Positions 1 to 22,116 of a stretch of 60,367 nt of DNA are shown piece by piece (the stretch's first letter is position 1; the number at the start of each line of letters is the position of its first letter). The notes below the pieces were generated by a model, which was given only the letters and a program-made list of their open reading frames with translations, was not told where the DNA came from and made no database searches. The position numbers and the translations under genes were made by a program. This stretch comes from Clostridia bacterium (GTDB lineage Bacteria; Bacillota; Clostridia; Oscillospirales; Acutalibacteraceae), in contig JAFXLD010000035.1 of NCBI GenBank assembly GCA_017531385.1, forward strand, positions 1 to 60,367, read 5' to 3'.

Positions 1-1
1 C

Positions 2-379: not shown

Positions 380-401
380 TTCAGATAAGGAGACTAAGAT
401 A

Positions 402-641: not shown

Positions 642-642
642 T

Positions 643-900: not shown

Positions 901-906
901 CGGATA

Positions 907-3751: not shown

Positions 3752-3763
3752 GGAGATGACAGC

Positions 3764-5185: not shown

Positions 5186-5198
5186 CTAAAAATAAATT

Positions 5199-5248
5199 CC
5201 TGCATATTACATATCTTTTTTGTCTTCGTTATGTAATGTGCAGGTTTT
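5199..5248 (+). terminator. Long hairpin terminator after hydrogenase operon
   Basis: Arms of 15 bases with one mismatch (CCTGCATATTACATA against TATGTAATGTGCAGG) enclose a T-rich loop, and TTTTAT follows. It starts 13 bases after the hydrogenase stop, so it most likely ends the hydrogenase transcript. Confidence 0.75.
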
Positions 5249-5260
5249 ATCATTATTTAT

Positions 5261-5282
5261 GTCGCCCGTTTTTTCGGGCGAC
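5261..5282. terminator. Convergent hairpin between hydrogenase and island genes
   Basis: GTCGCCCG and CGGGCGAC form a perfect 8-bp stem around a T-rich loop. It lies just past the end of the minus-strand TnpV gene, so it can terminate either converging transcript. It is close to where the mobile island appears to begin. Confidence 0.65.
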
Positions 5283-5288
5283 AATTAT

Positions 5289-5645
5289 TTATTGGAATAT
5301 TAAATCATTACAAACTATCTCAGTTGCTTTTTGCTGAATGTTACCCATTCGCTGTATCCATTCCCATTGGTTATGCTCTTTAAACTCTTCTGTAATGCCT
5401 TCAGTTTCTTTCATCTGTTCAACAATCGTATTAAACATGTGCTGAGTTTGAATTTCTATCTCGATACAGTGCTGATAAAGTTTGCCGTCTGTAAGTAAGG
5501 TTATAAATAAAGCTTTCTTATGTTTAAGAAGGTAATCTTTATGCAACATACCCCATTTACCGAGCCTGACATTCGCTTCTTCGGGAGGGAGTGTGAGGTT
5601 GGGTATCATAAAATCATTAACCTGTCTGTATGTAATATTTTTCAT
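5289..5645 (-). CDS. tnpV: TnpV-family transposon-encoded protein, copy 1
   Basis: A short protein of the TnpV family, common accessory proteins of Tn4451-like and other Clostridial integrative elements; their biochemical role is not established. The start at 5645 (MKNITYR) is preferred over 5657 because it aligns with the second copy at 7899 (MSDITYR), and AAAGGATG sits at a proper distance. It shares the NLTLPPEE and LGKWGM segments with that copy. It is translated after the small gene at 5654-5932, with nearly touching ends. Confidence 0.8.
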   Translation of the reverse strand: MKNITYRQVNDFMIPNLTLPPEEANVRLGKWGMLHKDYLLKHKKALFITLLTDGKLYQHCIEIEIQTQHMFNTIVEQMKETEGITEEFKEHNQWEWIQRMGNIQQKATEIVCNDLIFQ

Positions 5646-5653
5646 AGTAGCAT

Positions 5654-5932
5654 TCATCCTTTCGTATTCTTAACAAATGTATCGTATGCAAATTTAGCAC
5701 CAAGCCTGAAGCCTGATATAAAGCTGTCAGCATTACTTGTTGTTGAAAATTCAATATAAGAGCTGACATAGCTTTGGAACAAGTCCTTTTCTTCACCGGT
5801 TAGTCTTGCTGCGAGTTGTTCTTCTTTCTCTGCAAGGTTACTCAGTTTCTTTTTGATCTTATGTGTTAATTCTGAATTGACTTCTTGCGGTTCAAGGTTG
5901 CCGTAGTAGAAATCCTCTATGATATTAGCCAT
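5654..5932 (-). CDS. DUF6809-like small helical protein, copy 1
   Basis: A 92-residue, mostly helical charged protein with no catalytic motif that I can see. It begins MANIIEDFYYGNLEPQE and ends GFRLGAKFAYDTFV, and closely matches the protein at 7614. It resembles the DUF6809-type proteins that travel with tnpV in Clostridial elements; that name is from memory, not a search. The start at 5932 is chosen over the upstream in-frame start at 5965 because it aligns with the paralogue and follows the stop of the 54-residue gene by 4 bases. Confidence 0.75.
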   Translation of the reverse strand: MANIIEDFYYGNLEPQEVNSELTHKIKKKLSNLAEKEEQLAARLTGEEKDLFQSYVSSYIEFSTTSNADSFISGFRLGAKFAYDTFVKNTKG

Positions 5933-5936
5933 AATA

Positions 5937-6101
5937 TCACCACTTTCTATTCCCACTCTTATCAATGATTTTTAGGAGCAATTCATTAACATCTTCAGTA
6001 GGCAAGTCCTCAGCCAAAAGCATATTGCGAAACTCATTCATACCATTGATAAGCAAGTTACACTCAAAATCCGTAAACTTAATTTTTGTTTTTCTTTCCA
6101 T
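5937..6101 (-). CDS. 54-residue conserved-type small protein upstream of TnpV pair
   Basis: An open frame of 54 residues starting MERKTKIKFTDFE and ending DKSGNRKW. It has a strong AGGAGG site 8 bases before the ATG and ends 4 bases before the DUF6809-like start, so it is the first gene of a three-gene operon. The pattern (basic N-terminus, then a helical segment ending in NELLLKIID) recalls short accessory proteins common in gut Firmicutes elements. I do not know its function. There is no counterpart in front of the second DUF6809/TnpV pair. Its ribosome site lies inside the inverted repeat at 6107-6153. Confidence 0.7.
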   Translation of the reverse strand: MERKTKIKFTDFECNLLINGMNEFRNMLLAEDLPTEDVNELLLKIIDKSGNRKW

Positions 6102-6106
6102 AACAA

Positions 6107-6153
6107 AACCTCCTGTTACTTGGTAATTTCATTTTACCTTATAACAGGAGGTT
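6107..6153 (-). promoter_or_regulatory. Inverted repeat that can mask the ribosome site of the 54-aa gene
   Basis: AACCTCCTGTTA (6107-6118) and TAACAGGAGGTT (6142-6153) are a perfect 12-bp inverted repeat with a 23-base loop. The loop holds a further GGTAA/TTACC stem. On the minus strand the downstream arm contains the AGGAGG ribosome site of the gene starting at 6101, so a folded mRNA would hide it. Confidence 0.6.
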
Positions 6154-6239
6154 AGTCGAATGTACGGATTTATTTTTGGTAGCCGCTACCGAAATTTTTG
6201 CAAGAAAAAGCTCGTATACAAGATATCATATTTTTTGTA

Positions 6240-7250
6240 TCATTTTTTTGCTGCTGTTATTTCTCTAAGTTGATTTTGAATTGCTTTTGCTGCGGGTGAT
6301 TGTGCATTTTTAATTATATCTGCAAATTCTATCTTCAATGCATTAACTTCGGCCATATCTGCAGCTAATTGTTGTTGTAATCCTAATATTTCTTTAGCAG
6401 AAGACATATCAGCTATTTGCTGTTTTATTGCCAACAATTCAGCGGGTTGTGCTTTCGAAATAATATCTCGAATGTTGATAATCTCTTTTGTTGAGTCCAA
6501 TAATCTCATAGCAGATTTCAACTCAGCATTAAAGGCTTCGGTCATCTTTTCGGGCTCTTCTTCTGCGATTTCGATGATTTTGCCTATTTCTTCATCTAAC
6601 TGGTCATTTATTTTTTTGAAGAGTTTTTTTGCATCCTTGTATGTTTTGGTATTAATATTATGTGCATGCATTGTGTCATTGCGATAAATCTTAGCCGAAA
6701 TAAAATTTTCTCTTAGTTCTGATACAGCATTTGCACCAATTAAAATGTCCCACCTTGTATTTTCTTCAATTAGATTTAAACTTTTAATAATTTCGTCTTT
6801 TGTAAAGGCCCAGCTTTTATCATTTACAGTTGCTCTGACCTTTTTTACAAAGTTGTCATCTGTAAATATAAGTGTAAAAATTTCACCCAAGTCTTTGTTT
6901 TCTAATCCATATATATTTTCGGCAATTTCATCTCCTTTGTTTAATGCACTTTTAAGATACAATAGTTTTCTTAACTTTCGTTCGAATTCATTTATAAAAG
7001 GGAACAATGTTTTATTGTAATAAGCAGAGCTCCCATTGCTTAAAACTGTGGGAGAAAAATTGTTTGTTATGTAGTCATTAATATCGGAAAGGATTTTTGC
7101 TCCGTCTTCGTTTTCCCCTGGCACAGAATATGTTACAATCCAACAATCTGAATTATCGAATTTATAAATATCTTTACTTGCTTTAATAGGTTCATATGCT
7201 TCTATTTCAGTTTTGTTTGTATCGTCAATAAACAAATATTCTTGTATCAT
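6240..7250 (-). CDS. HEPN-like protein with RNxxxH motif, putative defence ribonuclease
   Basis: A 336-residue protein, not recognised as a named family. Residues about 80-215 look like a HEPN domain: a helix INEFERKLRKLLYL (about 86-99), then a second helical part ending in YRNDTMHAHN, where R190-N191 and H195 make the RNxxxH signature of metal-independent HEPN ribonucleases. The last 110 residues are predicted coiled coil (many Lys/Glu/Ala heptads). The N-terminal 80 residues are a separate beta-rich segment. AAGGAGAG precedes the start and a good promoter lies 80 bases upstream. It stands alone between two inverted copies of the TnpV pair and next to restriction genes, so an anti-phage or toxin role is likely but inferred. 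Confidence 0.6.
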   Translation of the reverse strand: MIQEYLFIDDTNKTEIEAYEPIKASKDIYKFDNSDCWIVTYSVPGENEDGAKILSDINDYITNNFSPTVLSNGSSAYYNKTLFPFINEFERKLRKLLYLKSALNKGDEIAENIYGLENKDLGEIFTLIFTDDNFVKKVRATVNDKSWAFTKDEIIKSLNLIEENTRWDILIGANAVSELRENFISAKIYRNDTMHAHNINTKTYKDAKKLFKKINDQLDEEIGKIIEIAEEEPEKMTEAFNAELKSAMRLLDSTKEIINIRDIISKAQPAELLAIKQQIADMSSAKEILGLQQQLAADMAEVNALKIEFADIIKNAQSPAAKAIQNQLREITAAKK

Positions 7251-7317
7251 ATGATTATCTCTCCTTCATTACCACAATATACAATTTGTTTATATAGTAA
7301 TTAAATAAGTTTATTTT

Positions 7318-7574
7318 GTAGTTTTCTTTACAATTATAACACTTTATGTCGTTCTTTGCAATCTATAAAGAATATTATAGAAAACTACCTGATACACGTA
7401 TAGATTATCTATCTTGTATCAAGTGGATAATGCATATTACATATAAACAAAAAATCCGAACGCTTCACCAATCGGTAAAATGTTCGGATTATTTGTTTCT
7501 GGGATGAAAGATAACAACGGATTTGCTAAAACAATTGTTTTAACGGCGTTATCATACACATTCTGTTTCATCCC
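7318..7574. repeat. Cluster of four inverted repeats in the 363-base gene-free gap
   Basis: The gap from 7251 to 7613 holds no gene but four successive palindromic units. They are 7318-7327/7379-7388 (10 bp); TGATAC/GTATCA at 7390-7421 enclosing ATAGAT/ATCTAT; AATCCGAAC/GTTCGGATT at 7453-7461/7482-7490; and GGGATGAAA/TTTCATCCC at 7501-7509/7566-7574, which encloses GATAAC/GTTATC and the 16-base palindrome TAAAACAATTGTTTTA. The last unit is a nested 74-base hairpin directly ahead of the second TnpV operon. Confidence 0.7.
7333..7361 (-). promoter_or_regulatory. Promoter of the HEPN-like gene
   Basis: Read on the minus strand: -35 TTGCAA (7356-7361), 17-base spacer, -10 TATAAT (7333-7338). It lies 83 bases before the start codon. 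The 10-bp inverted repeat GTAGTTTTCT/AGAAAACTAC (7318-7327 and 7379-7388) brackets this promoter and could be an operator. Confidence 0.65.
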
Positions 7575-7613
7575 GAAAAAGTCCTTTCATAGTATAAACG
7601 AGGAGATGAATTG

Positions 7614-7892
7614 ATGTCAACATTTATTGAAGAATTATACTATGGAAACATCGAGCCGCAGGAATTGAATTCCGAATTGTCATCAAGGCTCAAAAACAAA
7701 CTAAGTGAGCTTACAGAAAAGGAAGAACAGCTCACAGCAAAACTGACCGCAGAGTATAAGAAACTGTTTCTTGACTACGCAAATACATACAATGAGTTTT
7801 TGAGTATAAGCAATTCCGATAGCTTTATGTCAGGTTTCAGGCTTGGTGCTAAATTTACTTACGACACCTTTGTTAAAGGTCAGAAAGGATGA
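7614..7892 (+). CDS. DUF6809-like small helical protein, copy 2
   Basis: A 92-residue paralogue of the gene at 5654-5932, in opposite orientation. It shares EELYYGNIEPQELNSEL at the N-terminus and SGFRLGAKFTYDTFVKG at the C-terminus. The start at 7614 is chosen because AGGAG (7601-7605) is 8 bases away; an adjacent TTG at 7611 would be too close. Function is unknown. The paired copies facing away from the HEPN gene suggest either two elements nested side by side or duplication with inversion. Confidence 0.75.
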   Translation: MSTFIEELYYGNIEPQELNSELSSRLKNKLSELTEKEEQLTAKLTAEYKKLFLDYANTYNEFLSISNSDSFMSGFRLGAKFTYDTFVKGQKG

Positions 7893-7898
7893 AAAATT

Positions 7899-8255
7899 AT
7901 GTCAGACATTACTTATCGTCAAGTCAATGGTTATCTTATACCAAATCTCACCCTACCACCCGAAGAATCAAACATCCACCTCGGGAAATGGGGAATGATA
8001 TATAAGGATTATCTTCTTAAATATAAGAAAGTATTATTCACAACTATGCTCGCTGAGGGTAAACTATGGCAGCACCTTGTTGACATTGACACTCAAGCAC
8101 AGCAGATGTTTGATAAACTTGTTGAGCAGATAAAAAGAGATGAAGGCATTACTGAACAACTGAAAGAAGTGAATCAGTTGGAGTGGGTACAGAGAGTAAA
8201 TAATGTTGAAATACAGGTTTCTGAAATGATAATTCATCAATTTTTACTTATATAA
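7899..8255 (+). CDS. tnpV: TnpV-family transposon-encoded protein, copy 2
   Basis: A 118-residue TnpV-family protein, clearly related to the copy at 5289-5645 but diverged through its second half, so the duplication is not recent. AAAGGATG precedes the ATG, and the gene follows the DUF6809-like stop by 6 bases. It is followed at once by a perfect 13-bp hairpin that separates it from the oppositely transcribed hsdM. Confidence 0.8.
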   Translation: MSDITYRQVNGYLIPNLTLPPEESNIHLGKWGMIYKDYLLKYKKVLFTTMLAEGKLWQHLVDIDTQAQQMFDKLVEQIKRDEGITEQLKEVNQLEWVQRVNNVEIQVSEMIIHQFLLI

Positions 8256-8256
8256 A

Positions 8257-8290
8257 TTAGCGCCTATGGTATAAAAGCCATAGGCGCTAA
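8257..8290. terminator. Bidirectional terminator between tnpV copy 2 and hsdM
   Basis: TTAGCGCCTATGG and CCATAGGCGCTAA make a perfect 13-bp stem with an 8-base loop. It lies between converging genes (stops at 8255 and 8301), so it can end both transcripts. Confidence 0.8.
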
Positions 8291-8300
8291 TCATATATTT

Positions 8301-9911
8301 TTATTTTAATTCAGGCAACCCAAGTTCTCTTAAAAACTGATTGTGTTTATATTTTGCTTTTTGGATATCCTTTTCAATTCTTGTAAGTTCTTTACTTACC
8401 TCAATGAGATCAACGGGTTCTTCTACAGTTGCTGTACTTACATAACGAGAAATGTTTAAGTTATAGTTATTGTTTTTGATTTCCTCTAACGATACACGAC
8501 GCGAATATTTCTTATCATCTTCCTTTCTATATTGATAGGTTTCAACAATTTTATCAATGTGTTCAGGAAGTAGAATATTTTGCCGCTTACTCTTTTCGAA
8601 ATAATCGCTGGCGTTAATAAACAATACATCATCAAACTTTTTACATTTTTTGAGAACAATGATACATACGGGAATCCCTGTTGAAAAGAACAGATTTGCT
8701 GGAAGTCCAATAATTGTATCGATATGCCCATCCAACAGCAACTTTTTACGAATAGCTTCTTCTGATCCGCCACGGAAAAGAACACCGTGAGGAAGGATAA
8801 TAGCCATTGTTCCTTCGTCACTTAAGAAATGGAAACCGTGAAGTAAGAATGCAAAATCGGCTGCAGATTTTGGAGCAACACCGTAATTTTTAAATCGGAA
8901 ATCCTCCTTCATAGACTCTTTAGGTTCCCACCTTAAACTAAACGGAGGATTTGCTACCACAGCATCACACTGTAATTTTTTTGACGGGTTCATTTCCTTA
9001 AGCAAGTTCCAGTCATTTGCCAAGGAGTCTCCGTGGAAAATCTGGAACTCCGAATCCTTAAGTCCATGAAGAATCATGTTCATGCGAGCAAGATTGTAAG
9101 TTGTGATGTTCTTTTCTTGTCCATAGATTTGTCCTATGTTATTAGAACCCAATTGTTTCTTTACGTTTATCAGTAGCGAGCCTGAACCACAAGCAAAGTC
9201 CAAAACATTTTTTAGACGTGTCTTTTTGCCTGTGCTGGGATCTTGACTATCTAAGGTAACGATACGCGAAAGAATGGTAGATACTTGCTGAGGAGTATAG
9301 AACTCACCGGCCTTTTTGCCCGAACCAGCAGCGAATTGACCTATAAGATATTCGTACGCATCACCCAACAAATCTGAATCGTTAGGGAACTCAGAAAGTC
9401 CCTTTGCGATTTCAGTTATTACCGAACAAAGCATAGTGTTACGTGCAGAATAGTTTTTTCCTAATTTTTCAGAATCAAGATTAACTTCAGAGAACAATCC
9501 ATGAAATTTACTGTCAAATGACTCGTTTTCAATATATTTTAATCCGGCTTGAAGTGTTTTTAAGAGACCGTTACTCTGCGTTTTCGCAAGCTCATATATA
9601 TAGTCCCACAAATAATTGGGCTTAATAACATAATGAACTTTACGGCGCATTTGCTTCTCAAATTCCGCAACATCGTCTTTGTTATTATTGTACCACAAAG
9701 CCAGTGCGCGCCAAGGCTCTGTTTGTTTCAAATCAAAATAATCTTTGCCTAGTTCTTTCTTTACAGCTTCTTCGTAATTATCAGAAAGATACCGCAGAAA
9801 GAGAAAGGAGAGCATATAGTCACGGAAATCGTCAGCATTCATTGCGCCACGAAGTTTATTTGCTATTCCCCATAACGTTGCGCCCAATTGTTTCTGTTGA
9901 TTATTTTCCAT
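8301..9911 (-). CDS. hsdM: Type I restriction-modification DNA methyltransferase subunit HsdM
   Basis: A 536-residue N6-adenine methyltransferase, the M subunit that with HsdS methylates the host recognition site. It has the helical HsdM N-terminal domain (about 1-150), the AdoMet motif FACGSGSLL and the catalytic motif NPPF (segment VANPPFSLRW). Length is normal for the family. It is the last gene of the operon hsdR-hsdS-anticodon nuclease-hsdM. Its ATG overlaps the preceding stop by one base (TAATG), so translation is coupled. Confidence 0.93.
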   Translation of the reverse strand: MENNQQKQLGATLWGIANKLRGAMNADDFRDYMLSFLFLRYLSDNYEEAVKKELGKDYFDLKQTEPWRALALWYNNNKDDVAEFEKQMRRKVHYVIKPNYLWDYIYELAKTQSNGLLKTLQAGLKYIENESFDSKFHGLFSEVNLDSEKLGKNYSARNTMLCSVITEIAKGLSEFPNDSDLLGDAYEYLIGQFAAGSGKKAGEFYTPQQVSTILSRIVTLDSQDPSTGKKTRLKNVLDFACGSGSLLINVKKQLGSNNIGQIYGQEKNITTYNLARMNMILHGLKDSEFQIFHGDSLANDWNLLKEMNPSKKLQCDAVVANPPFSLRWEPKESMKEDFRFKNYGVAPKSAADFAFLLHGFHFLSDEGTMAIILPHGVLFRGGSEEAIRKKLLLDGHIDTIIGLPANLFFSTGIPVCIIVLKKCKKFDDVLFINASDYFEKSKRQNILLPEHIDKIVETYQYRKEDDKKYSRRVSLEEIKNNNYNLNISRYVSTATVEEPVDLIEVSKELTRIEKDIQKAKYKHNQFLRELGLPELK

Positions 9912-11026
9912 TATTTATCACCTACATGTAAAACAAAATTGTATTTGTTTTTTAGCTTGTTGAAAACATCCAAGAAAAGTTCTTCGTTGTCTGGAACTAA
10001 CTCTTTTGCTTCATATCTAAAAACGTTTTTATGGGATAATGTATTTACTATTCGAGAAACTCGATCTACATCATCAATACCAATTTGTTCAAGAACATAC
10101 CCGATTCTTCCCACACCTAAAAAAGAAGCTACATTTTCTAAAACTTGCCTTAAAATACTAAAATGATAAGCATATAATTTATTCTCATTAACAGCATTTT
10201 GAAGAATCTGTAAAAGCTCTAAGTGGTATAAAAATACCTCTTTTTTGCAACTCGTTAATTTTAATTCAGATCCATTGTTTTTTAATATGTATTGTTGCAA
10301 ATGATTTTTATATGCTTGAGATTTTTCTCCTTTTCCCAACCAATCAGACAAAATCGCGAAGAATCCAACATGGTGTGTCGTTATAATAATTTTTCTATCT
10401 TCATAATGATTATCAATCAAATCCATTAATGAGGAAGCCGTTACGAATATATTATGCTCATCAAGACTTGAAACTGGATCATCAATGAAAAAATGACTAT
10501 TCTGCGTACCTGTCCAACCATTAATATCGAATAAAGTTAGAAAAAAGCACCAAATAAAAATTTGTTCTTCTCCCCTAGAAATTTTAATAGCATCGAGTTC
10601 TTCATCTTTTTCATCTGTTTGAGGATAAAAACTGATTGACTCAATACCTTTGGAAGTATCATCATAAAAATTAAATTTATAATCAAATTTCGGTTTATAT
10701 ATTGCTAGCTTTTCATTCAATTTTGTTTCATCTAAGGATGAGTGGTATTGATTTAAACTGGAAGGCAAAACCATTAATCTAATTTGTTCCCCAGTATTTT
10801 CTGCATCATTTTGCCAATAAAACAAATCTTCACTATAAGCATTGTAGTAAACGCCAGCATGTTTTCCACCATTGTTAGCTTTAGTTAAATCTTTGTATTT
10901 CACAGATAAACGCGTTTTACCCGTTCCGTTAAAAGCATATACGAGAACGATAGTTTTGTCTGAAGAAATAATTTGTTCAGATATACCTGCCAAATTTTCG
11001 TCCAAAGATGTTTTTTTGTCACTCAT
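9911..11026 (-). CDS. PrrC-like anticodon nuclease (ABC-type ATPase + nuclease domain)
   Basis: A 371-residue ABC-class ATPase lying inside the type I restriction operon. Walker A is NGTGKT (33-38, in YAFNGTGKTRLS), the ABC signature is ISRGEEQ (149-155), Walker B is HFFIDDP (178-184) and the switch is TTHH. The C-terminal part shows R293-x3-E297 and then S331-H332, the same order and near the same spacing as the Arg-Glu-His triad of E. coli PrrC, which cuts tRNA-Lys when phage proteins disarm the restriction enzyme. Size and location also fit PrrC. It overlaps hsdS and hsdM by 4 and 1 bases. tRNA cleavage here is inferred; a RloC-like or other ATPase is the alternative. Confidence 0.72.
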   Translation of the reverse strand: MSDKKTSLDENLAGISEQIISSDKTIVLVYAFNGTGKTRLSVKYKDLTKANNGGKHAGVYYNAYSEDLFYWQNDAENTGEQIRLMVLPSSLNQYHSSLDETKLNEKLAIYKPKFDYKFNFYDDTSKGIESISFYPQTDEKDEELDAIKISRGEEQIFIWCFFLTLFDINGWTGTQNSHFFIDDPVSSLDEHNIFVTASSLMDLIDNHYEDRKIIITTHHVGFFAILSDWLGKGEKSQAYKNHLQQYILKNNGSELKLTSCKKEVFLYHLELLQILQNAVNENKLYAYHFSILRQVLENVASFLGVGRIGYVLEQIGIDDVDRVSRIVNTLSHKNVFRYEAKELVPDNEELFLDVFNKLKNKYNFVLHVGDK

Positions 11027-12300
11027 TTTAATACCTCCTCAATTGAAGGAAATAGTTCAACAATCAATCCTTTTTTATGTGACTGTAACATTCTAATTCT
11101 GTTTTCTTGCTCAAATATTAAAATATCCATACTCTTCAAAAAAATAGCAATTTTCTGTTGTTCTTTAGGGTCAGGACACACGGGTACGGGCATTTCCATA
11201 AAATCTTCTGTCGAGATATTGATACGATCGTGTCTTGCACCGGTGTTTGATTTGCTATTTATATACTTGTGCCATAGTGTTGTTTTAAAATAGTACTCAT
11301 AAAAGCCATGATCTTCCTCTTTGAATCTAAAAATAGTATACAAAGGAGACATAATCCCTCGTCCAATTTTATTTTTTGAGATAGGTCCTACGGGAGCAAG
11401 TGTTGATATTCGAGGATTATATACATAATCACCTTTTTCAATCACATAGTAGTTAGAAAGATTATTTCCACTAACAATTTTCCGATCAAAATATTCATTT
11501 TGAGCAACAACCCCGTTAATTGCAGAATTGGTGAGAACACGTTTAATACTATTGTCTTTGTTTTTTAAGATTACTCTATCTGCTATATCACTCAATTTAA
11601 CATGTTTCCACATGCCTGATTTGAGATAGTCGTGAAATCTTTGATTTGGATTCTTGTTTTCGTCCGTTGGGAAGAGGCTTTGCAATAGTCCAATCTTGTG
11701 TTTTTTCAAAACATCAAGCTTAGAAATTTCACTAATAATTAGTTTGTCAATTTCCGATAAAACCTCTACAATTTTTTTCTGTTCCTTTTTGGCGGGTAAA
11801 GCAATTGGCATATTCCATAAATAATTACAATCAACGTTTAAGGAGCCATGCGCACGTGCGCCGACCTCTATATATTTCCTTAACCATTTACCATGATAGT
11901 TGCTTTGGAAAAGTTGGTTAATAAAGTCTGGCACACATTCTGTATCGGTTATTCTAAAACAAATAAATATACTGTTAGGCAACGCTGCTTCATGATAATC
12001 TTCAAGCATAGCAATATAGCCCTCAGGAAATTGTTTTGTGGAACTTTTGTTATAGGCAAAGTCATTCTTCCTAATAATATAATAATTCTTATAAGAATTA
12101 CCTGCTATTTCTCTTCCAAACTTTTCTTTCTGAGGCACCAATCCTTTTCCGGCGGTAACACTCATAAGAATGCAGTTTTTCGACCCGACTTTTTCTTCGA
12201 TAGGCTCGGAAATCGCTCCTAATGTTGTGATTTCCCACTCGGGATAAGAATTAAATTCCTGAAATCGAAGTTTAGGAAGAACTGTTTTTTTATCACTCAT
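11023..12300 (-). CDS. hsdS: Type I restriction-modification specificity subunit HsdS
   Basis: A 425-residue DNA-recognition subunit. It has two target-recognition halves, each ending in a conserved helix: LPAKKEQKKIVEVLSEIDKL in the middle and DPKEQQKIAIFLKSMDIL near the end. These helices set the spacing between the two half sites and bind HsdM. The start at 12300 (MSDKKTVL) is preferred over 12306 because the next gene starts with almost the same sequence (MSDKKTSL). It overlaps the end of hsdR by 8 bases. Confidence 0.92.
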   Translation of the reverse strand: MSDKKTVLPKLRFQEFNSYPEWEITTLGAISEPIEEKVGSKNCILMSVTAGKGLVPQKEKFGREIAGNSYKNYYIIRKNDFAYNKSSTKQFPEGYIAMLEDYHEAALPNSIFICFRITDTECVPDFINQLFQSNYHGKWLRKYIEVGARAHGSLNVDCNYLWNMPIALPAKKEQKKIVEVLSEIDKLIISEISKLDVLKKHKIGLLQSLFPTDENKNPNQRFHDYLKSGMWKHVKLSDIADRVILKNKDNSIKRVLTNSAINGVVAQNEYFDRKIVSGNNLSNYYVIEKGDYVYNPRISTLAPVGPISKNKIGRGIMSPLYTIFRFKEEDHGFYEYYFKTTLWHKYINSKSNTGARHDRINISTEDFMEMPVPVCPDPKEQQKIAIFLKSMDILIFEQENRIRMLQSHKKGLIVELFPSIEEVLK

Positions 12301-15295: not shown

Positions 15296-15364
15296 AATAC
15301 GACCTCCATATAAAGGATTATGCTAATATCTATAACTAACTTGAATAATATTATATAGATATAG

Positions 15365-16368
15365 TCAATTTGAAAATTGGTTGATTTCATTTTCTAACCG
15401 CTCAATACCTTTAAGAATAATCTCAAAATCAGGTTTATTTCCGAAAATCATATTCTGCATATGCTCGTAGTCATCTTTAAGTGCCTGCAGATTTCTTTCG
15501 GGTGGCATTAAGCGGATTGTGCCGACTTTTGCTTCGTCATATCTTGCCCAAGGACAACGGTAAAACTTTTCTTTGAACTGTACCACCTTGTTAAGCAACT
15601 CAATATCAGCAAGTGCTTCATCCTTAACGGGTGAATTCATCATACAGTACAAATCATAATAATGACGCGAGTATCTTGACGGAAAAGCTTTATCTTCGGG
15701 ACGGAATGCCTCACGGTGAAGAATTGTGACCTTTTCCCAAAATGTTCGTTTCGGAAGAACGGTAAGAATATCCGTTGTCGGCTGAGTGAAAACTTTCGGA
15801 TACTGAATAGCTGCATAAGGTGTAATAGGTCTTTCCTCGGCAGGTGTCCAAGCTGCAAGAGCACCAATCTCAAGACGGATAACCGGGAGAATTGAGCTGT
15901 CTCAAAACTGCGGTTGTATGCAAAAACCACCGTCTGCGGGTCGGTTTCATCTATGTAGCAATTAACCGATGTGCTGAGTTCATTCTGCAAGTCCGCAATA
16001 ATCGCAGGCATAAAAGTGATTTTTAAGAATTCTTCTGTGCGGCGGTTTGCCTCTTTGTTGAAAATATCCTGCTTTGTGTTACTGCGTTCTTCCCAAGGCT
16101 CGTTGAGGTCAAAACCAATTACTCGCCAATCGAGGATAAGGTCAATATCTTCGGAAAAACGCTCAATCAGACCGTAGGATTTTGAAAGACTTGTACCGCC
16201 TTTAAAGGCAATGCTGTCTTTCCACTCACAACGGTGAAAAAGATAATCAAGCATAAAGCACACCCAAAAGTCTTTTTCAATAATTGCATTTGTAAGACCC
16301 ATTTTTGCTGCAGTGTTCTGAAACAGAGCCTTGCGGTCATTTTCTTTTATTGTTGCAATGTTGCGCAT
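15365..16368 (-). pseudogene. AbiEii-type nucleotidyltransferase toxin, frameshifted
   Basis: The N-terminal part has the nucleotidyltransferase signature GGTSLSKSYGLIERFSEDID (GG-T/S and DxD). Near 15900 the frame is lost: reading frame 1 gives a senseless tail to 15640, while another frame continues with SSILPVIRLEIGALAAWTP and runs into LYCMMNSPVKDEALADIEL to the stop at 15365. One missing base in the segment encoding SFxDSS (about 15899-15904) explains it; restoring it gives exactly 335 codons. AbiEii adds nucleotides to RNA targets (tRNA acceptor stems in related toxins) to stop growth. Either a true inactivating deletion or a sequencing error. Confidence 0.82.
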
Positions 16369-16371
16369 AAT

Positions 16372-16980
16372 TCAACTCCTGCAAATCAGTTTGATGTACT
16401 CATATATCCAAGATGTTGCCGCTTTTGCTTCAGTGAGAAGAGCCTGTTTTTCGCTGTCGGCAAGATTGTTTTTCAGTTTTGTTAAAACCGTATCATCAAC
16501 ATTATCTTTACCGAGAGCTTTCAATGCTTGTACCACAAGTGCGGTTTTATATGAAAGCTTGGATATTTCCTTGTTTGTTGTCCGTTTGAATTTAATTGTG
16601 GTCTGCTCATAGGTGTATTCTTTGTAATTGCCGTCACTTACATAAACCCAAGCAGCGGGAATCTGTGTTGAAAGTCCGAGCAGATTCAATGAAGTATCAC
16701 CGCAGGGAACAATAGTCCAACCGTAATTTCGTGCAAGAGCGTGTGCGACTGCATCAGGCTCAGGGGCAACATACTCACCAAGGAAATCGTTATATTCGGG
16801 TTTGTAATAAACGCCACGCATTATTTTTGAGACAATTTTTTCCGTTTCCAATCGTGTCAGGCACACACTGGCTGTCTTTTTATCTGTAAGCAAAGCAAAA
16901 TCAATCGGTACAAAAACTGTGCCAACCTCTGCTTTTTGAATATCATTTTTTATTTGTGACAAAATAGCAGGTCGTTCCAT
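16372..16980 (-). CDS. AbiEi-type antitoxin / transcriptional regulator (DUF6088)
   Basis: A 202-residue protein of the type IV antitoxin AbiEi group: an N-terminal winged-helix part (about 1-65, ending MRGVYYKPEY) and a C-terminal antitoxin domain. It ends 4 bases before the toxin gene. In the AbiE family the antitoxin does not bind the toxin but represses the operon by binding inverted repeats at its promoter; the repeat at 16991-17020 fits that. The antitoxin frame is intact although the toxin frame is broken. Confidence 0.85.
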   Translation of the reverse strand: MERPAILSQIKNDIQKAEVGTVFVPIDFALLTDKKTASVCLTRLETEKIVSKIMRGVYYKPEYNDFLGEYVAPEPDAVAHALARNYGWTIVPCGDTSLNLLGLSTQIPAAWVYVSDGNYKEYTYEQTTIKFKRTTNKEISKLSYKTALVVQALKALGKDNVDDTVLTKLKNNLADSEKQALLTEAKAATSWIYEYIKLICRS

Positions 16981-16990
16981 AAACTCACCT

Positions 16991-17029
16991 CGTTGAAAAT
17001 AGTATATACTTTTTTCAACGAAATATCAA
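16991..17029 (-). promoter_or_regulatory. abiE promoter with overlapping inverted-repeat operator
   Basis: On the minus strand: -35 TTGATA (17024-17029), 17-base spacer, -10 TATACT (17001-17006). The inverted repeat CGTTGAAAA/TTTTCAACG (16991-16999 and 17012-17020) surrounds the -10 box, as expected for an AbiEi autorepression site. GAGGTGAG follows as ribosome site. Confidence 0.7.
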
Positions 17030-17079
17030 GAAAAATTTAAGATAACATCACTTTATTTAATAAAAATTTGAAAAACCTC

Positions 17080-17108
17080 TTGACAAAAGAACGTTTGTTC
17101 TATATAAT
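17080..17108 (+). promoter_or_regulatory. Promoter of the mobility module with SOS (LexA) box
   Basis: TTGACA (17080-17085), 17-base spacer, TATAAT (17103-17108): a near-consensus promoter. The spacer holds GAACGTTTGTTC (17089-17100), which fits the Gram-positive LexA/DinR operator core GAAC-N4-GTTC. LexA bound here would block the promoter until DNA damage. It faces the relaxase-recombinase genes. Confidence 0.75.
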
Positions 17109-17180
17109 GTAGTCACAATCAAAATTACAATTGAATATTGATTGCACTTCGGTGCGTAAGGCAACTCAGAAATAATACTC

Positions 17181-17284
17181 AAATAGCCGTTACATTTCTT
17201 ATGAACACTTTGCTTAAAAGGCTTGAATTTAATGCCCTTAAGGAAGTTGTTGGTATGGAATGTAACGGCTATTTTTGTTTTGTG
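17181..17284 (+). terminator. Attenuator-like 16-bp perfect hairpin in mobility-module leader
   Basis: AAATAGCCGTTACATT (17181-17196) and AATGTAACGGCTATTT (17259-17274) are perfectly complementary over 16 bp, with a 62-base loop; TTGTTTTGTG follows. It lies 73 bases downstream of the SOS promoter and before any good gene start, so it may stop most transcripts before the relaxase gene. Confidence 0.65.
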
Positions 17285-17291
17285 CGTAAAA

Positions 17292-17453
17292 AGCGAAGGG
17301 TGAATTTGCTCCTTCGCTCATGCCTGCAGAAAAGTTTCTGAATAGTCAGGAACATTTAGTCTCGCTTATGTCGATATATAAGTGAGGAAGGTTCCTCAAG
17401 CTGCAGGCAAAAGCCTCGCAGAGCCCACGGACATCTTTGCAGACGGTCAGGCT
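17292..17453 (+). other. Highly structured leader / oriT-proximal region
   Basis: Four properly nested or successive stems: AGCGAAGG/CCTTCGCT (17292-17299, 17311-17318); outer GCCTGCAG/CTGCAGGC (17322-17329, 17401-17408), enclosing AGGAAC/GTTCCT and CTCGCTTAT/ATAAGTGAG (one G-U pair); then AGCCT/AGGCT (17412-17416, 17449-17453). No plausible protein is encoded. It may be a structured RNA, relaxosome DNA, or both. It accounts for most of the 543-base gap 16981-17523. Confidence 0.6.
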
Positions 17454-17454
17454 G

Positions 17455-17490
17455 AAAGTGTCATAGTGGGTTACGCACTTTGAAAAAGTA
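17455..17490 (+). other. Putative MobV-type origin of transfer (oriT)
   Basis: AAAGTG (17455-17460) and CACTTT (17476-17481) form an inverted repeat around TCATAGTGGGTTACG. The core TAGTGGGTTA resembles the pMV158/MobM nick region TAGTGTG^TTA, so nicking would be expected between GGG and TTA at 17470/17471. It lies 34 bases before the MobV relaxase gene, the usual place for MobV origins. Confidence 0.62.
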
Positions 17491-17523
17491 GCGGAACAAA
17501 AATCAGCGAAAGGAGGTGAAAAA

Positions 17524-18741
17524 ATGAGAAGTAATTACAGCGTTGCAAGGGTAGTTACTCATACGCAATCAACCATCGGTAAATACGAAAGACACAACGA
17601 ACGCAAGAACGAACACTATCAGAATATGAATGTTGATTTATCACGGACCGAGATGAATGTGCATTTCAAAAGTTGCGGTGAACTGACCTACAACGAGCAG
17701 TTAGACAAGCTTATTTCAGACGGTAAGGTTTCTATGCGTGGACTTAAAAAAGATGCAAAGGTGTTTGATGAGGTTATCTTTGATGTCAATACGGACTACT
17801 TTGAAGGACATGGCGGTTATGAATACGCAAAGAGATTCTATGCAGATGCATACCGTTTTGCTGTTACTCTGTACGGCGAAGAAAATATCATCTCAGCCGT
17901 AATGCATGCAGATGAACTAAACATAGCACTGTCCGAAGAAAAAGGAAATCCTATCTATCACTACCATATGCATCTTGTCGCTCTGCCCGTTGTCGAAAAA
18001 CAGATACTTTGGACTAAACGGTGCAAAGATAAATCTTTGGTTGGCAAAGTAAAAGAAACAGTTAATCAGATAAGTCATTCGAAGAAGTGGAAATCACCGC
18101 AGGCAGTTGATGAAAACGGTAACCCCCGATACAACGAAAAAGGCAAGCCAATTTTAATCCCGTCATACAGCATCTTACAGGACGACTTTTTTGAATATAT
18201 GAACTCCGCAGGATACACAGACATTATAAGAGGCATTAAAGGAAGCACAACAGAACACTTAACTGGTCTGCAATACGAAATACAGCAGGATACAAAACGT
18301 TTAAAGGATATTGAAAGTAAACTGCAAAAAACAGAAACACAATATGAAGAAGTCAAAACAGTACACAAAATGTTTTCGGAAATCGAAAGCATGGGAAAGA
18401 AAACTCTGACCGGCAAGGTAACGGTCTCAAAAGAAGATTACGATGATTTAAGCAATATGGCCAAGGAATGCGTTATCGTAAGAGGTCAGGTAAAAACACT
18501 TGAAGAAGAAAACAAAAGACTCTCTAAAAGATGCTGGGATTTACAGAGCAGAATCAACAGACTTGAAGCACAGCTATATGAACTGAAACAGATTTGTGCT
18601 CCGTATTTGGAAGCCTTGAAGGCTATGCCTGAAAAAGTAAAGGCATTTATTGATGATGTTCTGAAAACTGTCCGAAAGGACAAGCCGGAACAACAAGTAA
18701 AATTTAAAAATGGAAGGAAGTATAAAAATTATGAAAGATAA
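17524..18741 (+). CDS. MobV-family relaxase (Pre/Mob)
   Basis: A 405-residue DNA-nicking relaxase that starts conjugative transfer at oriT. The N-terminal domain has the MobV motif HNERKNEHYQNMNVDLS (H24, R27, N34, D38) and the metal-binding cluster HADE (128-131) plus HYHMH (146-150). Residues about 245-345 are long coiled coil, normal in this family. GAAAGGAGGTG precedes the start. The element carries no type IV secretion genes here, so it is mobilizable rather than self-transmissible. Expression is probably under the SOS-box promoter at 17080. Confidence 0.9.
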   Translation: MRSNYSVARVVTHTQSTIGKYERHNERKNEHYQNMNVDLSRTEMNVHFKSCGELTYNEQLDKLISDGKVSMRGLKKDAKVFDEVIFDVNTDYFEGHGGYEYAKRFYADAYRFAVTLYGEENIISAVMHADELNIALSEEKGNPIYHYHMHLVALPVVEKQILWTKRCKDKSLVGKVKETVNQISHSKKWKSPQAVDENGNPRYNEKGKPILIPSYSILQDDFFEYMNSAGYTDIIRGIKGSTTEHLTGLQYEIQQDTKRLKDIESKLQKTETQYEEVKTVHKMFSEIESMGKKTLTGKVTVSKEDYDDLSNMAKECVIVRGQVKTLEEENKRLSKRCWDLQSRINRLEAQLYELKQICAPYLEALKAMPEKVKAFIDDVLKTVRKDKPEQQVKFKNGRKYKNYER

Positions 18742-19639
18742 AAAAGAATCTTTATTGGAAAAAGCGGCTAAAGCTTTTACTGAGCCGACAAAGGAATTAA
18801 ACATACCCCTTGATGAATTGCAGCCATTCAGGAATCACCCGTACAAGGTACGTGATGATGAAGAGATGGAAATGCTGACTAAAAGCATAAAGGAAAACGG
18901 AGTCCTCACACCGATAATCGTAACATATATGGATGTGAGAAAAACCAAGTATGACATCATATCGGGTCACCGCAGATATTTAGCCTGCAAAAAGTTGGGG
19001 CTTGAAACAATACCTGCAGTATTTAAGGAATTCACTTATGAAGAAGCGGTTATTGCTATGGTTGATTCCAACTTGCAGAGAGAACATATCTTACCGTCCG
19101 AAAAAGCGAAGGCATATAAAATGAAAATGGATGCAATGAAACAACAAGGCAGGCGAACGGATTTAACTTCGGTCCAACTTGGTCCGAAGTTGACGGCAGA
19201 AGACATTTCAACAGAGGACAGTCCGTCTCAAGTGAAGCGGTATATACGGCTGACAAAGCTGATACCCGAGTTGCTCGATAAAGTTGATGAAGGCAAAATC
19301 GCACTCACTCCTGCTGTTGAGCTTTCGTATCTGCGTGTAGACGAGCAAAAGAATTTACTCGAAACAATGAACAGCGAAGATTGTACACCCTCACTGTCAC
19401 AGGCGCAGCAGTTACGCAACTTATCCCTTGCGGAATTGCTTACTATGGACCAAATCTTTGCAGTGATGAGCAAGTCAAAAGCGAATCAGAGAGAAAAGAT
19501 AACCATAAAACTTGATGACATACGGAAATTCATACCCAAAGACTATACGCAAAAGCAGGTCAGCGAGTTATTAATCGCTTTGCTTGAAAAATGGTCTAAA
19601 CAACAGAACAAAACCAGAAGTGATAAGGGGGCAAGATAA
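18731..19639 (+). CDS. ParB/RepB-family nuclease-fold DNA-binding protein
   Basis: A 302-residue ParB-like protein. The N-terminal ParB domain shows ISGHRRYLACKKLG (about residues 79-92) and NLQREHILPSEKA, the CTP/DNA-binding boxes; a helix-turn-helix segment follows (QVKRYIRLTKLIPELLDKVD). ParB-like genes occur regularly between the relaxase and tnpX in Clostridial mobilizable elements, where they may help maintain the circular form. The start at 18731 (MKDKKES) is preferred over 18710 because GGAAGG precedes it; the gene overlaps the relaxase end by 11 bases. No parA neighbour is present. Confidence 0.85.
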   Translation: MKDKKESLLEKAAKAFTEPTKELNIPLDELQPFRNHPYKVRDDEEMEMLTKSIKENGVLTPIIVTYMDVRKTKYDIISGHRRYLACKKLGLETIPAVFKEFTYEEAVIAMVDSNLQREHILPSEKAKAYKMKMDAMKQQGRRTDLTSVQLGPKLTAEDISTEDSPSQVKRYIRLTKLIPELLDKVDEGKIALTPAVELSYLRVDEQKNLLETMNSEDCTPSLSQAQQLRNLSLAELLTMDQIFAVMSKSKANQREKITIKLDDIRKFIPKDYTQKQVSELLIALLEKWSKQQNKTRSDKGAR

Positions 19640-19914
19640 TGAAATATTGGCAAATGTTAAAATTCAAGATTATCGAAACAATCGGCAACACCCGTGCTGA
19701 ATTAAAACTCAATAAAGATGGCGATGCAAATGAATATATCATCAACGGTGTGCGTTATGTAGTTTCAACACAGTACAGTAAAACCGAAACAATGACACTC
19801 AAGGACAGAATTAAAAAATATATAGGTAGCGATTTTGCACATTTGACAACCGCTGAAGATATAAATACAATTAACAAAGAATGTGTATGTATGACTGCCG
19901 GAAAGGAGGACTAA
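19639..19914 (+). CDS. TnpW-like transposon-encoded small protein
   Basis: A 91-residue protein starting at a TAATG junction with the ParB-like gene. The stretch INGVRYVVSTQYSKTETMTL followed by KDRIKKYIG resembles TnpW, a small protein found directly before tnpX in Tn4451-type elements; its role is unknown. The fit is judged by eye and is moderate. It ends in another TAATG overlap with the recombinase gene, so all four mobility genes are translationally linked. Confidence 0.65.
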   Translation: MKYWQMLKFKIIETIGNTRAELKLNKDGDANEYIINGVRYVVSTQYSKTETMTLKDRIKKYIGSDFAHLTTAEDINTINKECVCMTAGKED

Positions 19915-21596
19915 TGCAGTCAAATAATATTGGCATTACTGCTCTCTACTGCCGTCTTTCACGAGATGACGGCAATAAAGAAAATGAGAGTAACTCTATC
20001 GAAAATCAAAAATTGATGTTAGCGAGGTATGCTAAGGAGAAAGGTTTCGAAAACACCAGATTTTATGTTGATGACGGTTTTACCGGTACAAACTTCAACC
20101 GACCTGATTTCAAGCGAATGATGGAAGATGTTGAAGCGGGATATATCTCAACTATTATCGTTAAGGATATGTCCCGATTCGGAAGAAACTATGTTGAGGT
20201 TGGCCTTTATACCGAGTCTTACTTTCCCGAAAACAATATCCGCTTTATTGCTATTACCGATTTGGTTGATAGTGCTGACGGTGAAAATGAAATAATTCCG
20301 TTCAAAAATGTTATGAACGAGATGTATGCAAGAGATATTTCGAAGAAAGTACGGTCAGCCAAAAGAATCCGTGGCAATATGGGTGAACCGCTTTCTCAAC
20401 CACCTTACGGATATATGAAAGACCCACAGAATCCAAAAAAGTGGGTTGTTGAGCCTGAGGCTGCTAAGGTGGTAAAAAAGATTTTTGAACTTTACCTTGA
20501 AGGCTATGGTCAAGAGAAGATTGCATGGTATCTGCAAGACAATGGTATAAAGAACTGTACGGCATATTGGCAAGAAAGAGGTATTGGCAGAGGCGGTAAA
20601 AAGGTGCAGCCTAACCCATACAAATGGAAAAGCTCAACAATACGTCAGATTCTTGTCCGTCAGGAATATTGCGGTGATGTGGTGAACTTCAAAACCTATT
20701 CACAATCTTTTAAAAACAAGAAACGTCATATGAGTCCGAAAGAAGATTTAAAAATCTTCAAGGATGTTCACGAACCAATAATTTCCCGTGACACCTATGA
20801 AGCAGTACAAAGGCTTGTTGGCACCTGTAAACGCCGAGACCCTTTGCCTCAGAATGGAAAGAAAAACATTTTTTGTGATTTTCTTGTTTGTGCCGAATGC
20901 GGCCATAAGCTGTGGTATCATGTAAACACCCGAAACAAAGATATTCACTATTTCAGTTGTTCTAATTATGTAAAGGATTACAGAGGTAGTTGCCAACACA
21001 GGCATTATGTAAGAGCAGATGCCATTGAACAAATTGTTTCGATGGAAATCAAGAAACTTGCAAACTACCTTAAGAATAATGAGGATGAGCTTGTTGAAGT
21101 GCTTACAATGAAAACTGAAGCGGATATTCAGGCTGAAAGAAAATATCTTAATGCAGAGCTTCAGAGATGTACTTCACGACAGAATACCGTAAACTCTCTT
21201 TACGAAAAACTTTATGAGGATAATGCTCTCGGTAAAGTAACAGATGCTTGGTTCCTGCATATGTCTCAGAAATACGAGATAGAAAAAGCGGAGTTAAAAA
21301 AGAAAATGGCAAAGATTCACGAGGACCTTGAAGCTTTGAACGAAAGAAAAAAGGACAAGGATGTGTTTGTGGAATCTGTAAGACGGTTTATACAGATGGA
21401 CAAACTTACAACACCGCTTCTCAGAGAACTCATTGATCACATTGACGTTTATGAAACAGAGGGTACAGGCAAAAACAAAACTCAAAGAATTGTAATTCAT
21501 TACCGATTTGTAGGAAACATTGAAATTCCGTCGGATGAAGAAAATTTCAAATTGGATATGAGGCAAGGTATGGCGGTTGAATACCTCACGGCATAA
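19914..21596 (+). CDS. tnpX: Large serine recombinase, TnpX type
   Basis: A 560-residue site-specific recombinase expected to excise and integrate the island as a circle. The catalytic domain begins ALYCRLSRDD with nucleophile S16 and contains DMSRFGRNY and the invertase helix; the recombinase domain and a zinc ribbon follow (CAECG and a later Cys pair near YFSCSNYVKDYRGSC). A C-terminal coiled coil (about 390-470) matches the family. The start at 19914 is preferred over 19881 because AAAGGAGG is 6 bases away. TnpX-type enzymes use very short, often GA, crossover sites. Confidence 0.92.
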   Translation: MQSNNIGITALYCRLSRDDGNKENESNSIENQKLMLARYAKEKGFENTRFYVDDGFTGTNFNRPDFKRMMEDVEAGYISTIIVKDMSRFGRNYVEVGLYTESYFPENNIRFIAITDLVDSADGENEIIPFKNVMNEMYARDISKKVRSAKRIRGNMGEPLSQPPYGYMKDPQNPKKWVVEPEAAKVVKKIFELYLEGYGQEKIAWYLQDNGIKNCTAYWQERGIGRGGKKVQPNPYKWKSSTIRQILVRQEYCGDVVNFKTYSQSFKNKKRHMSPKEDLKIFKDVHEPIISRDTYEAVQRLVGTCKRRDPLPQNGKKNIFCDFLVCAECGHKLWYHVNTRNKDIHYFSCSNYVKDYRGSCQHRHYVRADAIEQIVSMEIKKLANYLKNNEDELVEVLTMKTEADIQAERKYLNAELQRCTSRQNTVNSLYEKLYEDNALGKVTDAWFLHMSQKYEIEKAELKKKMAKIHEDLEALNERKKDKDVFVESVRRFIQMDKLTTPLLRELIDHIDVYETEGTGKNKTQRIVIHYRFVGNIEIPSDEENFKLDMRQGMAVEYLTA

Positions 21597-21603
21597 CAAA
21601 AAA

Positions 21604-21698
21604 GAGCAGGCTAAAACCTGCTCGATACATAAATTGAATACTATGAAGAAACACAAAAAAATCGAGTGTTCATCACTTAAATCCGTAATGAACACTCG
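21604..21698 (-). terminator. Two hairpins between tnpX and tRNA-Tyr
   Basis: GAGCAGG/CCTGCTC (21604-21610, 21617-21623) and CGAGTGTTCAT/ATGAACACTCG (21663-21673, 21688-21698). On the minus strand each is followed by a run of six or seven T, so both read as intrinsic terminators for the leftward tRNA transcript. The first may also stop tnpX readthrough. The island's right end probably lies in or near this stretch. Confidence 0.75.
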
Positions 21699-21701
21699 AA
21701 A

Positions 21702-21786
<85 letters not shown>

Positions 21787-22077: not shown

Positions 22078-22116
22078 AAAGTGATTTAATATTACTACTG
22101 TAAAAAGGTGTGTTTT

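What the first reader, a model, noticed from the sequence alone, without database searches (positions are those of the whole stretch)
5289..21650. Mobilizable defence island combining one DNA and three RNA-targeting systems
Between the hydrogenase terminator and a tRNA pair lies a cargo of defence-type genes (HEPN-like, type I restriction with embedded PrrC-like nuclease, AbiE) joined to a complete MobV-ParB-TnpW-TnpX mobility module. The combination suggests layered defence: DNA restriction first, then tRNA or RNA attack if restriction fails. The genes are seen; the joint function is inferred.
Basis: partly seen in the sequence, partly recalled or inferred. Interest (0 to 1): 0.75.

Follow-up and report, generated by a model that had tools for sequence, protein, structure and literature searches.

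The report
tRNA-end mobile element carrying phage defences
A 14-kb piece of mobile DNA appears to have inserted itself exactly at the end of a tRNA gene, to bring a replacement stop signal for that gene, and to carry a DNA-restriction system with a built-in tRNA-cutting enzyme; related elements use the ends of many different tRNA genes.

Summary
The gene calls are largely right; the left border and part of the function are not. The mobile element is 14.2 kb (7500-21701), not 5289-21650. Its right end abuts the 3' CCA of tRNA-Tyr; its left end is a second CCA (TGG at 7500), outside which lies a terminator like those directly behind tRNA-Tyr in four other genomes. So tRNA-Tyr is the target, and the element supplies its own terminator hairpin. 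Among 70 loci with kin recombinases (window included) a tRNA 3' end follows in 10 of 10 (>=75% identity), 30 of 39 (55-74%), 8 of 11 (44-54%) and 0 of 10 (37-43%); one 84% copy left out of that count has none. Near-identical recombinases sit at different tRNAs. One kin element has an empty-site counterpart. Cargo: a type I R-M operon with PrrC between hsdS and hsdM, AbiEi, and an AbiEii split by a frame change. The HEPN-like gene and the outer TnpV pair lie outside. "One DNA plus three RNA systems" reduces to one R-M/PrrC unit, a known kind. Serine recombinases at tRNA genes are reported as rare; a many-tRNA TnpX clade with a portable terminator is a new variant.

The parts
7453..7490 (-). terminator hairpin just outside the left end; read as the displaced native terminator of tRNA-Tyr
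   Evidence: same type lies directly behind tRNA-Tyr in G343, G301, G177, G321; similar ones also elsewhere; stretch 7440-7499 folds at -27.3 kcal/mol
7500..7523 (-). left end of the element with the core CCA (TGG 7500-7502 on +)
   Evidence: homology with left ends of G170:C52 and G343:C4 begins at 7496; 5 mismatches to the family signature, not significant alone
7611..7892 (+). DUF6809 protein
   Evidence: PF20648 E 3.6e-22
7899..8255 (+). TnpV
   Evidence: PF14198 E 1.1e-37
8301..9911 (-). HsdM, type I methyltransferase
   Evidence: PF02384 E 1.2e-106
9911..11026 (-). PrrC-type anticodon nuclease candidate
   Evidence: PADLOC PrrC E 1.5e-105; R293, E297, H332 and ATPase motifs invariant in 6 of 6
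11023..12306 (-). HsdS, specificity subunit
   Evidence: PF01420 E 7.7e-12, two stretches; PADLOC
12293..15295 (-). HsdR, restriction subunit
   Evidence: EcoR124_C E 4.4e-68, HSDR_N, SWI2_SNF2
15365..16368 (-). AbiEii, split over two frames, probably not functional as assembled
   Evidence: two ORFs match positions 3-148 and 211-303 of one 309-position model
16372..16980 (-). AbiEi antitoxin
   Evidence: PADLOC AbiEi E 5.4e-62; Pfam DUF6088
17454..17481 (+). putative oriT
   Evidence: core TAGTGGGTTA exact in 8 of 12 distinct upstream stretches; likeness to MobV nick sites is recalled
17524..18741 (+). MobV-type relaxase
   Evidence: PF01076 E 1.4e-41
18710..19639 (+). ParB-like protein
   Evidence: PF02195 E 4.6e-20
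19639..19914 (+).
   Evidence: tblastn matches next to tnpX in kin; no family model
19881..21596 (+). TnpX-type large serine recombinase
   Evidence: Resolvase, Recombinase, Zn_ribbon, DUF4368; TnpX 2mhc E 4e-39
21663..21698 (-). right end with the hairpin that now stands as terminator of tRNA-Tyr
   Evidence: recurs behind other tRNAs in kin copies; stretch 21640-21701 folds at -25.3 kcal/mol
21702..21786 (-). tRNA-Tyr(GTA), integration target; core TGG 21702-21704
   Evidence: homology with 9 of 10 other genus genomes starts at 21702
5289..5965 (-). outside the element: TnpV/DUF6809 pair
   Evidence: PF14198 E 7.7e-39, PF20648 E 1.3e-21; dispersed cassette
6240..7250 (-). outside the element: 336-aa HEPN-like ORF (motif only)
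   Evidence: RNDxMH kept in a 50% identical homologue; no family above cut-off, no fold match

Best explanation
The feature is a 14.2-kb integrative and mobilizable element (7500-21701) that a TnpX-type serine recombinase inserted at the 3' CCA of tRNA-Tyr. Inferred steps: TnpX joins the circular form to the tRNA end through the CCA; the tRNA stays whole; its own terminator is pushed 14.2 kb away and the hairpin at the element's right end takes its place; MobV nicks near 17454-17481 so that the circle travels through a helper conjugative element. The cargo operon hsdR-hsdS-prrC-hsdM should restrict unmodified DNA and, as in the studied E. coli system, keep PrrC silent until a phage blocks restriction, when PrrC cuts a tRNA anticodon loop. 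AbiE is probably broken as assembled. Shown here by sequence: the genes, the right end, the left end by homology, the CCA repeat, the tRNA link across kin, an empty-site counterpart of a kin element, conserved PrrC motifs. Not shown: excision, transfer, restriction, tRNA cleavage.
For: Homology with 9 of 10 other genus genomes starts exactly at the tRNA 3' end. Kin recombinases are followed by an antisense tRNA 3' end in 10/10, 30/39, 8/11 and 0/10 loci by falling identity. Empty-site comparison G322/G371 and CCA at both junctions. Left-end pattern 51 hits against 3 for the reversed control in 28 genomes; 6 of the 51 are right ends. Left ends of G170 and G343 align from window 7496. Native-type terminator outside 7500. 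PrrC triad invariant in 6 of 6 and hsdS-prrC-hsdM order in plasmids.
Against: The left-end signature in the window has 5 mismatches, reached by 3 of 20 one-strand shuffles and by one other site at 60123. No empty tRNA-Tyr site with this exact left flank was found. Terminators like the one at 7453-7490 also occur elsewhere. Four of 13 other genus copies of the right end are not followed by an intact tRNA, and the 84% copy G000:C22 has neither hairpin nor tRNA in the 172 bases before its contig ends. The genome is a fragmented assembly. Function of the cargo is untested.
Confidence: 0.78

Rival explanations
1. The mobile element is the whole first-stage interval (5289-21650), with the outer TnpV pair and the HEPN-like gene as part of it.
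For: Symmetric TnpV/DUF6809 pairs flank the HEPN-like ORF; a 42-bp stretch at 5284-5325 next to the hydrogenase recurs in G004, and in G317 and G209 before another gene.
Against: Homology to kin left ends begins at 7496 and a tRNA-type terminator lies just outside; TnpV/DUF6809 cassettes are dispersed, with matches on nine other contigs of this genome in the rows shown, so they mark no border; in kin elements the cassette lies just inside the end in the orientation of the second pair.
Confidence: 0.1
2. The element is larger and includes the hydrogenase operon, with its left end off the contig.
For: No second end with at most 3 mismatches in the window; the hydrogenase segment is more alike between genera than a core gene pair is: G209 87% over 1-5325 against 67%.
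Against: The diverged left end at 7500 and the native-type terminator outside it; hydrogenase segments of about 10 kb occur in other settings without this element.
Confidence: 0.05
3. The borders are as I give them, but the R-M/PrrC/AbiE cargo serves mainly to keep the element from being lost (addiction), not to stop phages.
For: Toxin-antitoxin and type II R-M genes on ICEs and IMEs are discussed as addiction systems (PMC5704250, passage).
Against: That statement is for type II R-M and TA; in the studied case PrrC answers phage T4's anti-restriction factor (PMC3874165, PMC2610378, passages); AbiEii is split.
Confidence: 0.2

Closest known systems
Tn4451/Tn4453 integrative mobilizable elements (TnpX)
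   Same: Single large serine recombinase of TnpX type (2mhc), MobV-type relaxase, TnpV
   Different: Tn4451 and relatives insert with low specificity (PMC5704250, passage); here the target is a tRNA 3' CCA, the ends carry a terminator hairpin, and the cargo is R-M/PrrC/AbiE
EcoprrI/PrrC, type IC restriction with embedded anticodon nuclease
   Same: prrC inside an hsd operon; Arg-x3-Glu-...-His triad; HsdR of EcoR124 type
   Different: About 33% identical to the plasmid protein annotated as anticodon nuclease; order R-S-C-M; carried on a mobilizable element; activity untested
Dehalococcoides ssrA islands (DsiA/DsiB serine recombinases)
   Same: Serine recombinases at the 3' part of an essential tRNA-like gene, with parB in the module of a relative (PMC3146451, passages)
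   Different: There tmRNA with a 20-bp repeat and insertion in the T loop; here many tRNAs, a CCA repeat and a supplied terminator
Mycobacterium AICEs at tRNA-Leu and phage phiRSM1 at tRNA-Ser
   Same: Serine recombinase at tRNA genes (PMC3218068, passages)
   Different: One tRNA each; here one recombinase clade at Tyr, Ser, Gln, Pro, Leu, Arg and Met tRNA genes
IME_Rho_tet
   Same: IME of gut bacteria with serine recombinase and 21-bp terminal inverted repeats (PMC12904643, passages)
   Different: Inserts largely in small MAFF2 ORFs; 'tRNA', 'ParB' and 'MobV' have no occurrence in that text

Membership tests
TnpX-type (Tn4451-like) IME | Large serine recombinase of TnpX type | tested here: met
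   Domains; best PDB sequence TnpX 2mhc, E 4e-39
TnpX-type (Tn4451-like) IME | MobV-type relaxase and oriT | tested here: met
   Mob_Pre E 1.4e-41; NCBIfam MobV below its cut-off; conserved stretch before mobV, 8 of 12 exact, oriT itself inferred
TnpX-type (Tn4451-like) IME | Low insertion specificity, as described for Tn4451 | tested here: not met
   tRNA 3' ends in 48 of 60 loci with kin at 44% identity or more, window included
TnpX-type (Tn4451-like) IME | Excision as a circle | not testable with these tools
   No reads held
Genomic island at a tRNA gene | Gene kept whole, target repeat at both ends, empty site in relatives | tested here: met
   Kin element G322 against G371; for the window itself the repeat is 3 bp and no exact empty site was found
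PrrC anticodon nuclease | ABC-ATPase motifs and Arg-x3-Glu-...-His triad | tested here: met
   Invariant in 6 of 6 aligned sequences; triad as in PMC2610378
PrrC anticodon nuclease | Linked to a type I R-M operon | tested here: met
   Overlaps hsdS by 4 bp and hsdM by 1 bp
PrrC anticodon nuclease | Cuts a tRNA anticodon loop on release from the Hsd complex | not testable with these tools
   Needs an assay
AbiE toxin-antitoxin | Intact antitoxin AbiEi | tested here: met
   PADLOC E 5.4e-62
AbiE toxin-antitoxin | Intact toxin AbiEii | tested here: not met
   Two frames; assembly error not excluded
HEPN ribonuclease (ORF 6240-7250) | HEPN family match or fold with R-x4-6-H motif | tested here: inconclusive
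   Motif kept in one homologue; no family above cut-off; weak model, no fold match at E<=0.001

The most novel reading that the evidence does not exclude
One clade of TnpX recombinases recognises what tRNA genes share at their 3' end (acceptor/T arm and CCA) and not one particular gene, and so hops between Tyr, Ser, Gln, Pro, Leu, Arg and Met tRNA genes. Each element ends in a terminator hairpin that replaces the one it displaces, so the tRNA gene is spared. This would be a family of naturally many-target yet gene-sparing serine integrases, here delivering an R-M/PrrC defence that itself cuts tRNA.
Probability: 0.6. Interest if true: 0.68.

Novelty: new variant of a known kind. Interest (0 to 1): 0.52.

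Why it matters
Integration of serine recombinases into tRNA genes is called rare (PMC3218068, passage), and serine-recombinase IMEs are described as disrupting dispensable genes or inserting with low specificity (PMC5704250, passages). Here a broad recombinase clade uses tRNA 3' ends, seems to leave the gene whole and supplies a new terminator. If true, this predicts the att sites of many elements at once, helps explain why varied cargo, defence included, collects behind tRNA genes in these bacteria, and offers candidate integrases with several harmless landing sites. It also corrects the reading of this locus as a four-system defence island.

Tried and rejected
The 42-bp stretch shared with G004, G209 and G317 was first read as a left end and then dropped. 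2) Hydrogenase operon inside the element: considered after one search found no second end with at most 3 mismatches; dropped. 3) Empty tRNA-Gln site for G321: nine congener or kin loci share the tRNA cluster, but nothing of their 3' flanks matched the 20 kb of G321 examined. 4) search for related loci with PrrC in genome contigs: 1 relative. 5) PrrC against PDB sequences: none at E<=0.01. 6) HEPN-like ORF: two-sequence model, mean pLDDT 62; no PDB match at E<=0.001. 7) PADLOC scan of 9 of the 10 ORFs of 150 aa or more listed in the fetched cargo stretch of the G322 element: no match at 1e-5. 8) Paper searches: no paper on a tRNA-targeting TnpX clade appeared in the titles and abstracts listed; that is no proof that none exists. 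Papers were seen as passages only, the rest as listings.

Rows dropped before the count: of the rows listed I examined 70. Not examined among the better ones: G253:C13 (79%, partial), G389:C6 (seven stops), G001:C82 (partial), G258:C28, G097 and G086 (44%). Left out although known: G000:C22 (84%; no tRNA before its contig ends) and G000:C97 (55%; tRNA-Pro). With these two the first class would be 10 of 11 and the second 31 of 40. Two misses in the second class (L105, L133) had only 122 and 106 bases left behind tnpX.
Full report
What was checked. The nearest solved sequence of the recombinase is the catalytic domain of TnpX (2mhc, E 4e-39). The 91-aa ORF called TnpW matches no family scanned. 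AbiEii is in two frames: the ORF 15640-16368 matches positions 3-148 and the ORF 15365-15652 positions 211-303 of one 309-position model. The window is a whole contig of a 107-contig genome scored 83% complete, so this may be a mutation or an error.

Right end. In 9 of the 10 other genomes of the genus, homology with the window starts exactly at 21702, the 3' end of tRNA-Tyr; the tenth, G001, showed no tRNA-Tyr match there. The end of tnpX and its terminator recur in 13 other copies that I fetched from the genus; 12 of 13 also have a hairpin like that at 21663-21698 (by eye; the exception is G000:C22), and 9 of 13 abut an intact tRNA-Pro or tRNA-Leu. In G001 two copies are followed by a tRNA fragment only. 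The hairpin therefore belongs to the element and now stands as terminator of tRNA-Tyr.

Kin survey. Kin of the recombinase were found in 120 of 398 genomes of the family at E<=1e-100. I examined 70 loci: the 30 that the call returned (the window among them), 20 of the next rows, and 20 rows at 37-47% identity taken largely for their place on long contigs. An antisense tRNA within 250 nt behind tnpX was found in 10 of 10 (>=75% identity), 30 of 39 (55-74%), 8 of 11 (44-54%) and 0 of 10 (37-43%). Rows left out, among them a negative one at 84%, are told under Tried and rejected. The first class holds eight tRNA-Tyr, one tRNA-Ser and one tRNA-Gln. Near-identical recombinases sit at different tRNAs: Tyr/Ser 97.7%, Gln/Tyr 98.0%, Leu/Pro 97.0%.

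Empty site and ends of kin. G322:C11 has an element at tRNA-Ser(GCT). In G371:C4 the same region is 97% identical up to the tRNA end; a host terminator follows, and 1.1 kb on comes sequence (94%) that in G322 lies beyond the element. The 1.1 kb between is not in G322, so the left border there is read from the end sequence and not from this alignment. In the 14 other genomes with a match to this tRNA pair, the match ends at the tRNA end (2 of the 16 asked had no such match). The G322 element has CCA at both junctions and outward ends alike in sequence, about 23.0 kb apart. A pattern from its left end with up to 3 mismatches hit 51 places in 28 genomes, against 3 for the reversed control pattern. 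Six of the 51 are right ends, and those in G008 and G010 look like chance. The other ends printed run into CCA and then, in most by eye, a hairpin with a T-run. Two more elements with both ends measure about 15.0 kb (G261) and 25.9 kb (G321).

Left end in the window. With at most 3 mismatches to the end signature only the right end is found. The diverged left end is at 7500-7523, minus strand, with 5 mismatches in 20 positions; alone this is no better than chance (3 of 20 one-strand shuffles reach 5, and another 5-mismatch site lies at 60123). What places it is homology: the left ends of G170:C52 (78% over 379 columns) and G343:C4 (76% over 381) align with the window from 7496 on. The terminator just outside (7453-7490) is of the type directly behind tRNA-Tyr in G343, G301, G177 and G321, the four most alike of 39 distinct tRNA-Tyr 3' flanks, nine of which have the element type of end. 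Against this, similar terminators also occur at other places. The two terminators fold at -27.3 and -25.3 kcal/mol. The element is thus 7500-21701, 14,202 bp with one copy of the CCA. No exact empty tRNA-Tyr site with this flank was found.

Consequences. The HEPN-like ORF and the outer TnpV/DUF6809 pair are outside. TnpV/DUF6809 cassettes are dispersed: the rows shown have matches on nine other contigs of this genome. The HEPN-like ORF has a 50% identical homologue in G109 next to a DUF4391 gene; what it does is open.

Cargo. PrrC lies between hsdS and hsdM with overlaps of 4 and 1 bp. R293, E297, H332 and ATPase motifs are invariant in six of six aligned sequences. PrrC-like genes occur in 113 plasmid records. 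Of four that I opened, three show hsdR ... hsdS-PrrC-hsdM, two of these with one or two genes between R and S; in the fourth the gene behind PrrC is not listed. ORF sizes in a Chitinophagaceae contig fit the same order. This is a known kind of system: EcoprrI restricts DNA and holds PrrC until a phage blocks restriction (PMC3874165, PMC2610378, passages). In the genus PrrC was found in 1 of 11 genomes, this one. Kin elements carry other things: radical-SAM, PqqD and ABC-transporter genes in G261, acetyltransferase-like ORFs in G321 (by eye), large ORFs without a PADLOC match in G322.

Transfer. A stretch before mobV with the core TAGTGGGTTA is exact in 8 of 12 distinct upstream stretches, the window included. 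Its likeness to the MobV nick site is recalled; I propose it as oriT.

Literature. A review says that most IMEs with one tyrosine recombinase use sites such as tRNA 3' ends, that serine-recombinase IMEs disrupt dispensable genes, and that Tn4451 inserts with low specificity (PMC5704250, passages). [quoted passage not shown] Dehalococcoides ssrA islands use serine recombinases at tmRNA (PMC3146451, passages). So the principle has precedents; a many-tRNA TnpX clade with a portable terminator did not appear in the listings of my searches.

Verdict. The more interesting finding is where and how this recombinase clade integrates.

Noticed in passing
window 1-5325; L237 (G209:C35), L239 (G317:C29), L240 (G004:C41): A hydrogenase segment of about 10 kb is 97% identical between G004 and G209 (other genus), while a core gene pair is 67% identical between the window and G209; recent transfer, or contamination of a bin. 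In G004, G317 and G209 the last 42 bp of the outer tnpV follow the hydrogenase, then a MATE-like gene.
   Followed up: partly
window 5289-6200 and 7611-8255; many contigs of G000, G209, G343: TnpV/DUF6809 cassettes are dispersed at 70-84% identity in many copies per genome, often just inside the left end of TnpX elements.
   Followed up: partly
window 6240-7250; L344 (G109:C5) 349-2132: The HEPN-like ORF has a homologue overlapping a DUF4391 gene, a possible two-gene system; the DUF4391 partner is missing in the window.
   Followed up: partly
L073 (G001:C68), L075 (G001:C14), L127 (G322:C4): Some right ends are followed by a tRNA fragment cut short; in L127 an intact tRNA-Arg of the same kind stands further on. 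Perhaps decay, perhaps a second way of integrating.
   Followed up: no
L165 6754-15493 (G322:C11 element): Four consecutive ORFs (898, 1396, 167, 427 aa) in the cargo of a kin element, no PADLOC match and no Pfam match except a weak DUF2971: a possible unknown system.
   Followed up: partly
window 22108-23421: A sulfatase gene stands between the tRNA pair and the conserved aminotransferase gene; G003 has a match across it, while G004 and G008 have only a few hundred bases there.
   Followed up: no
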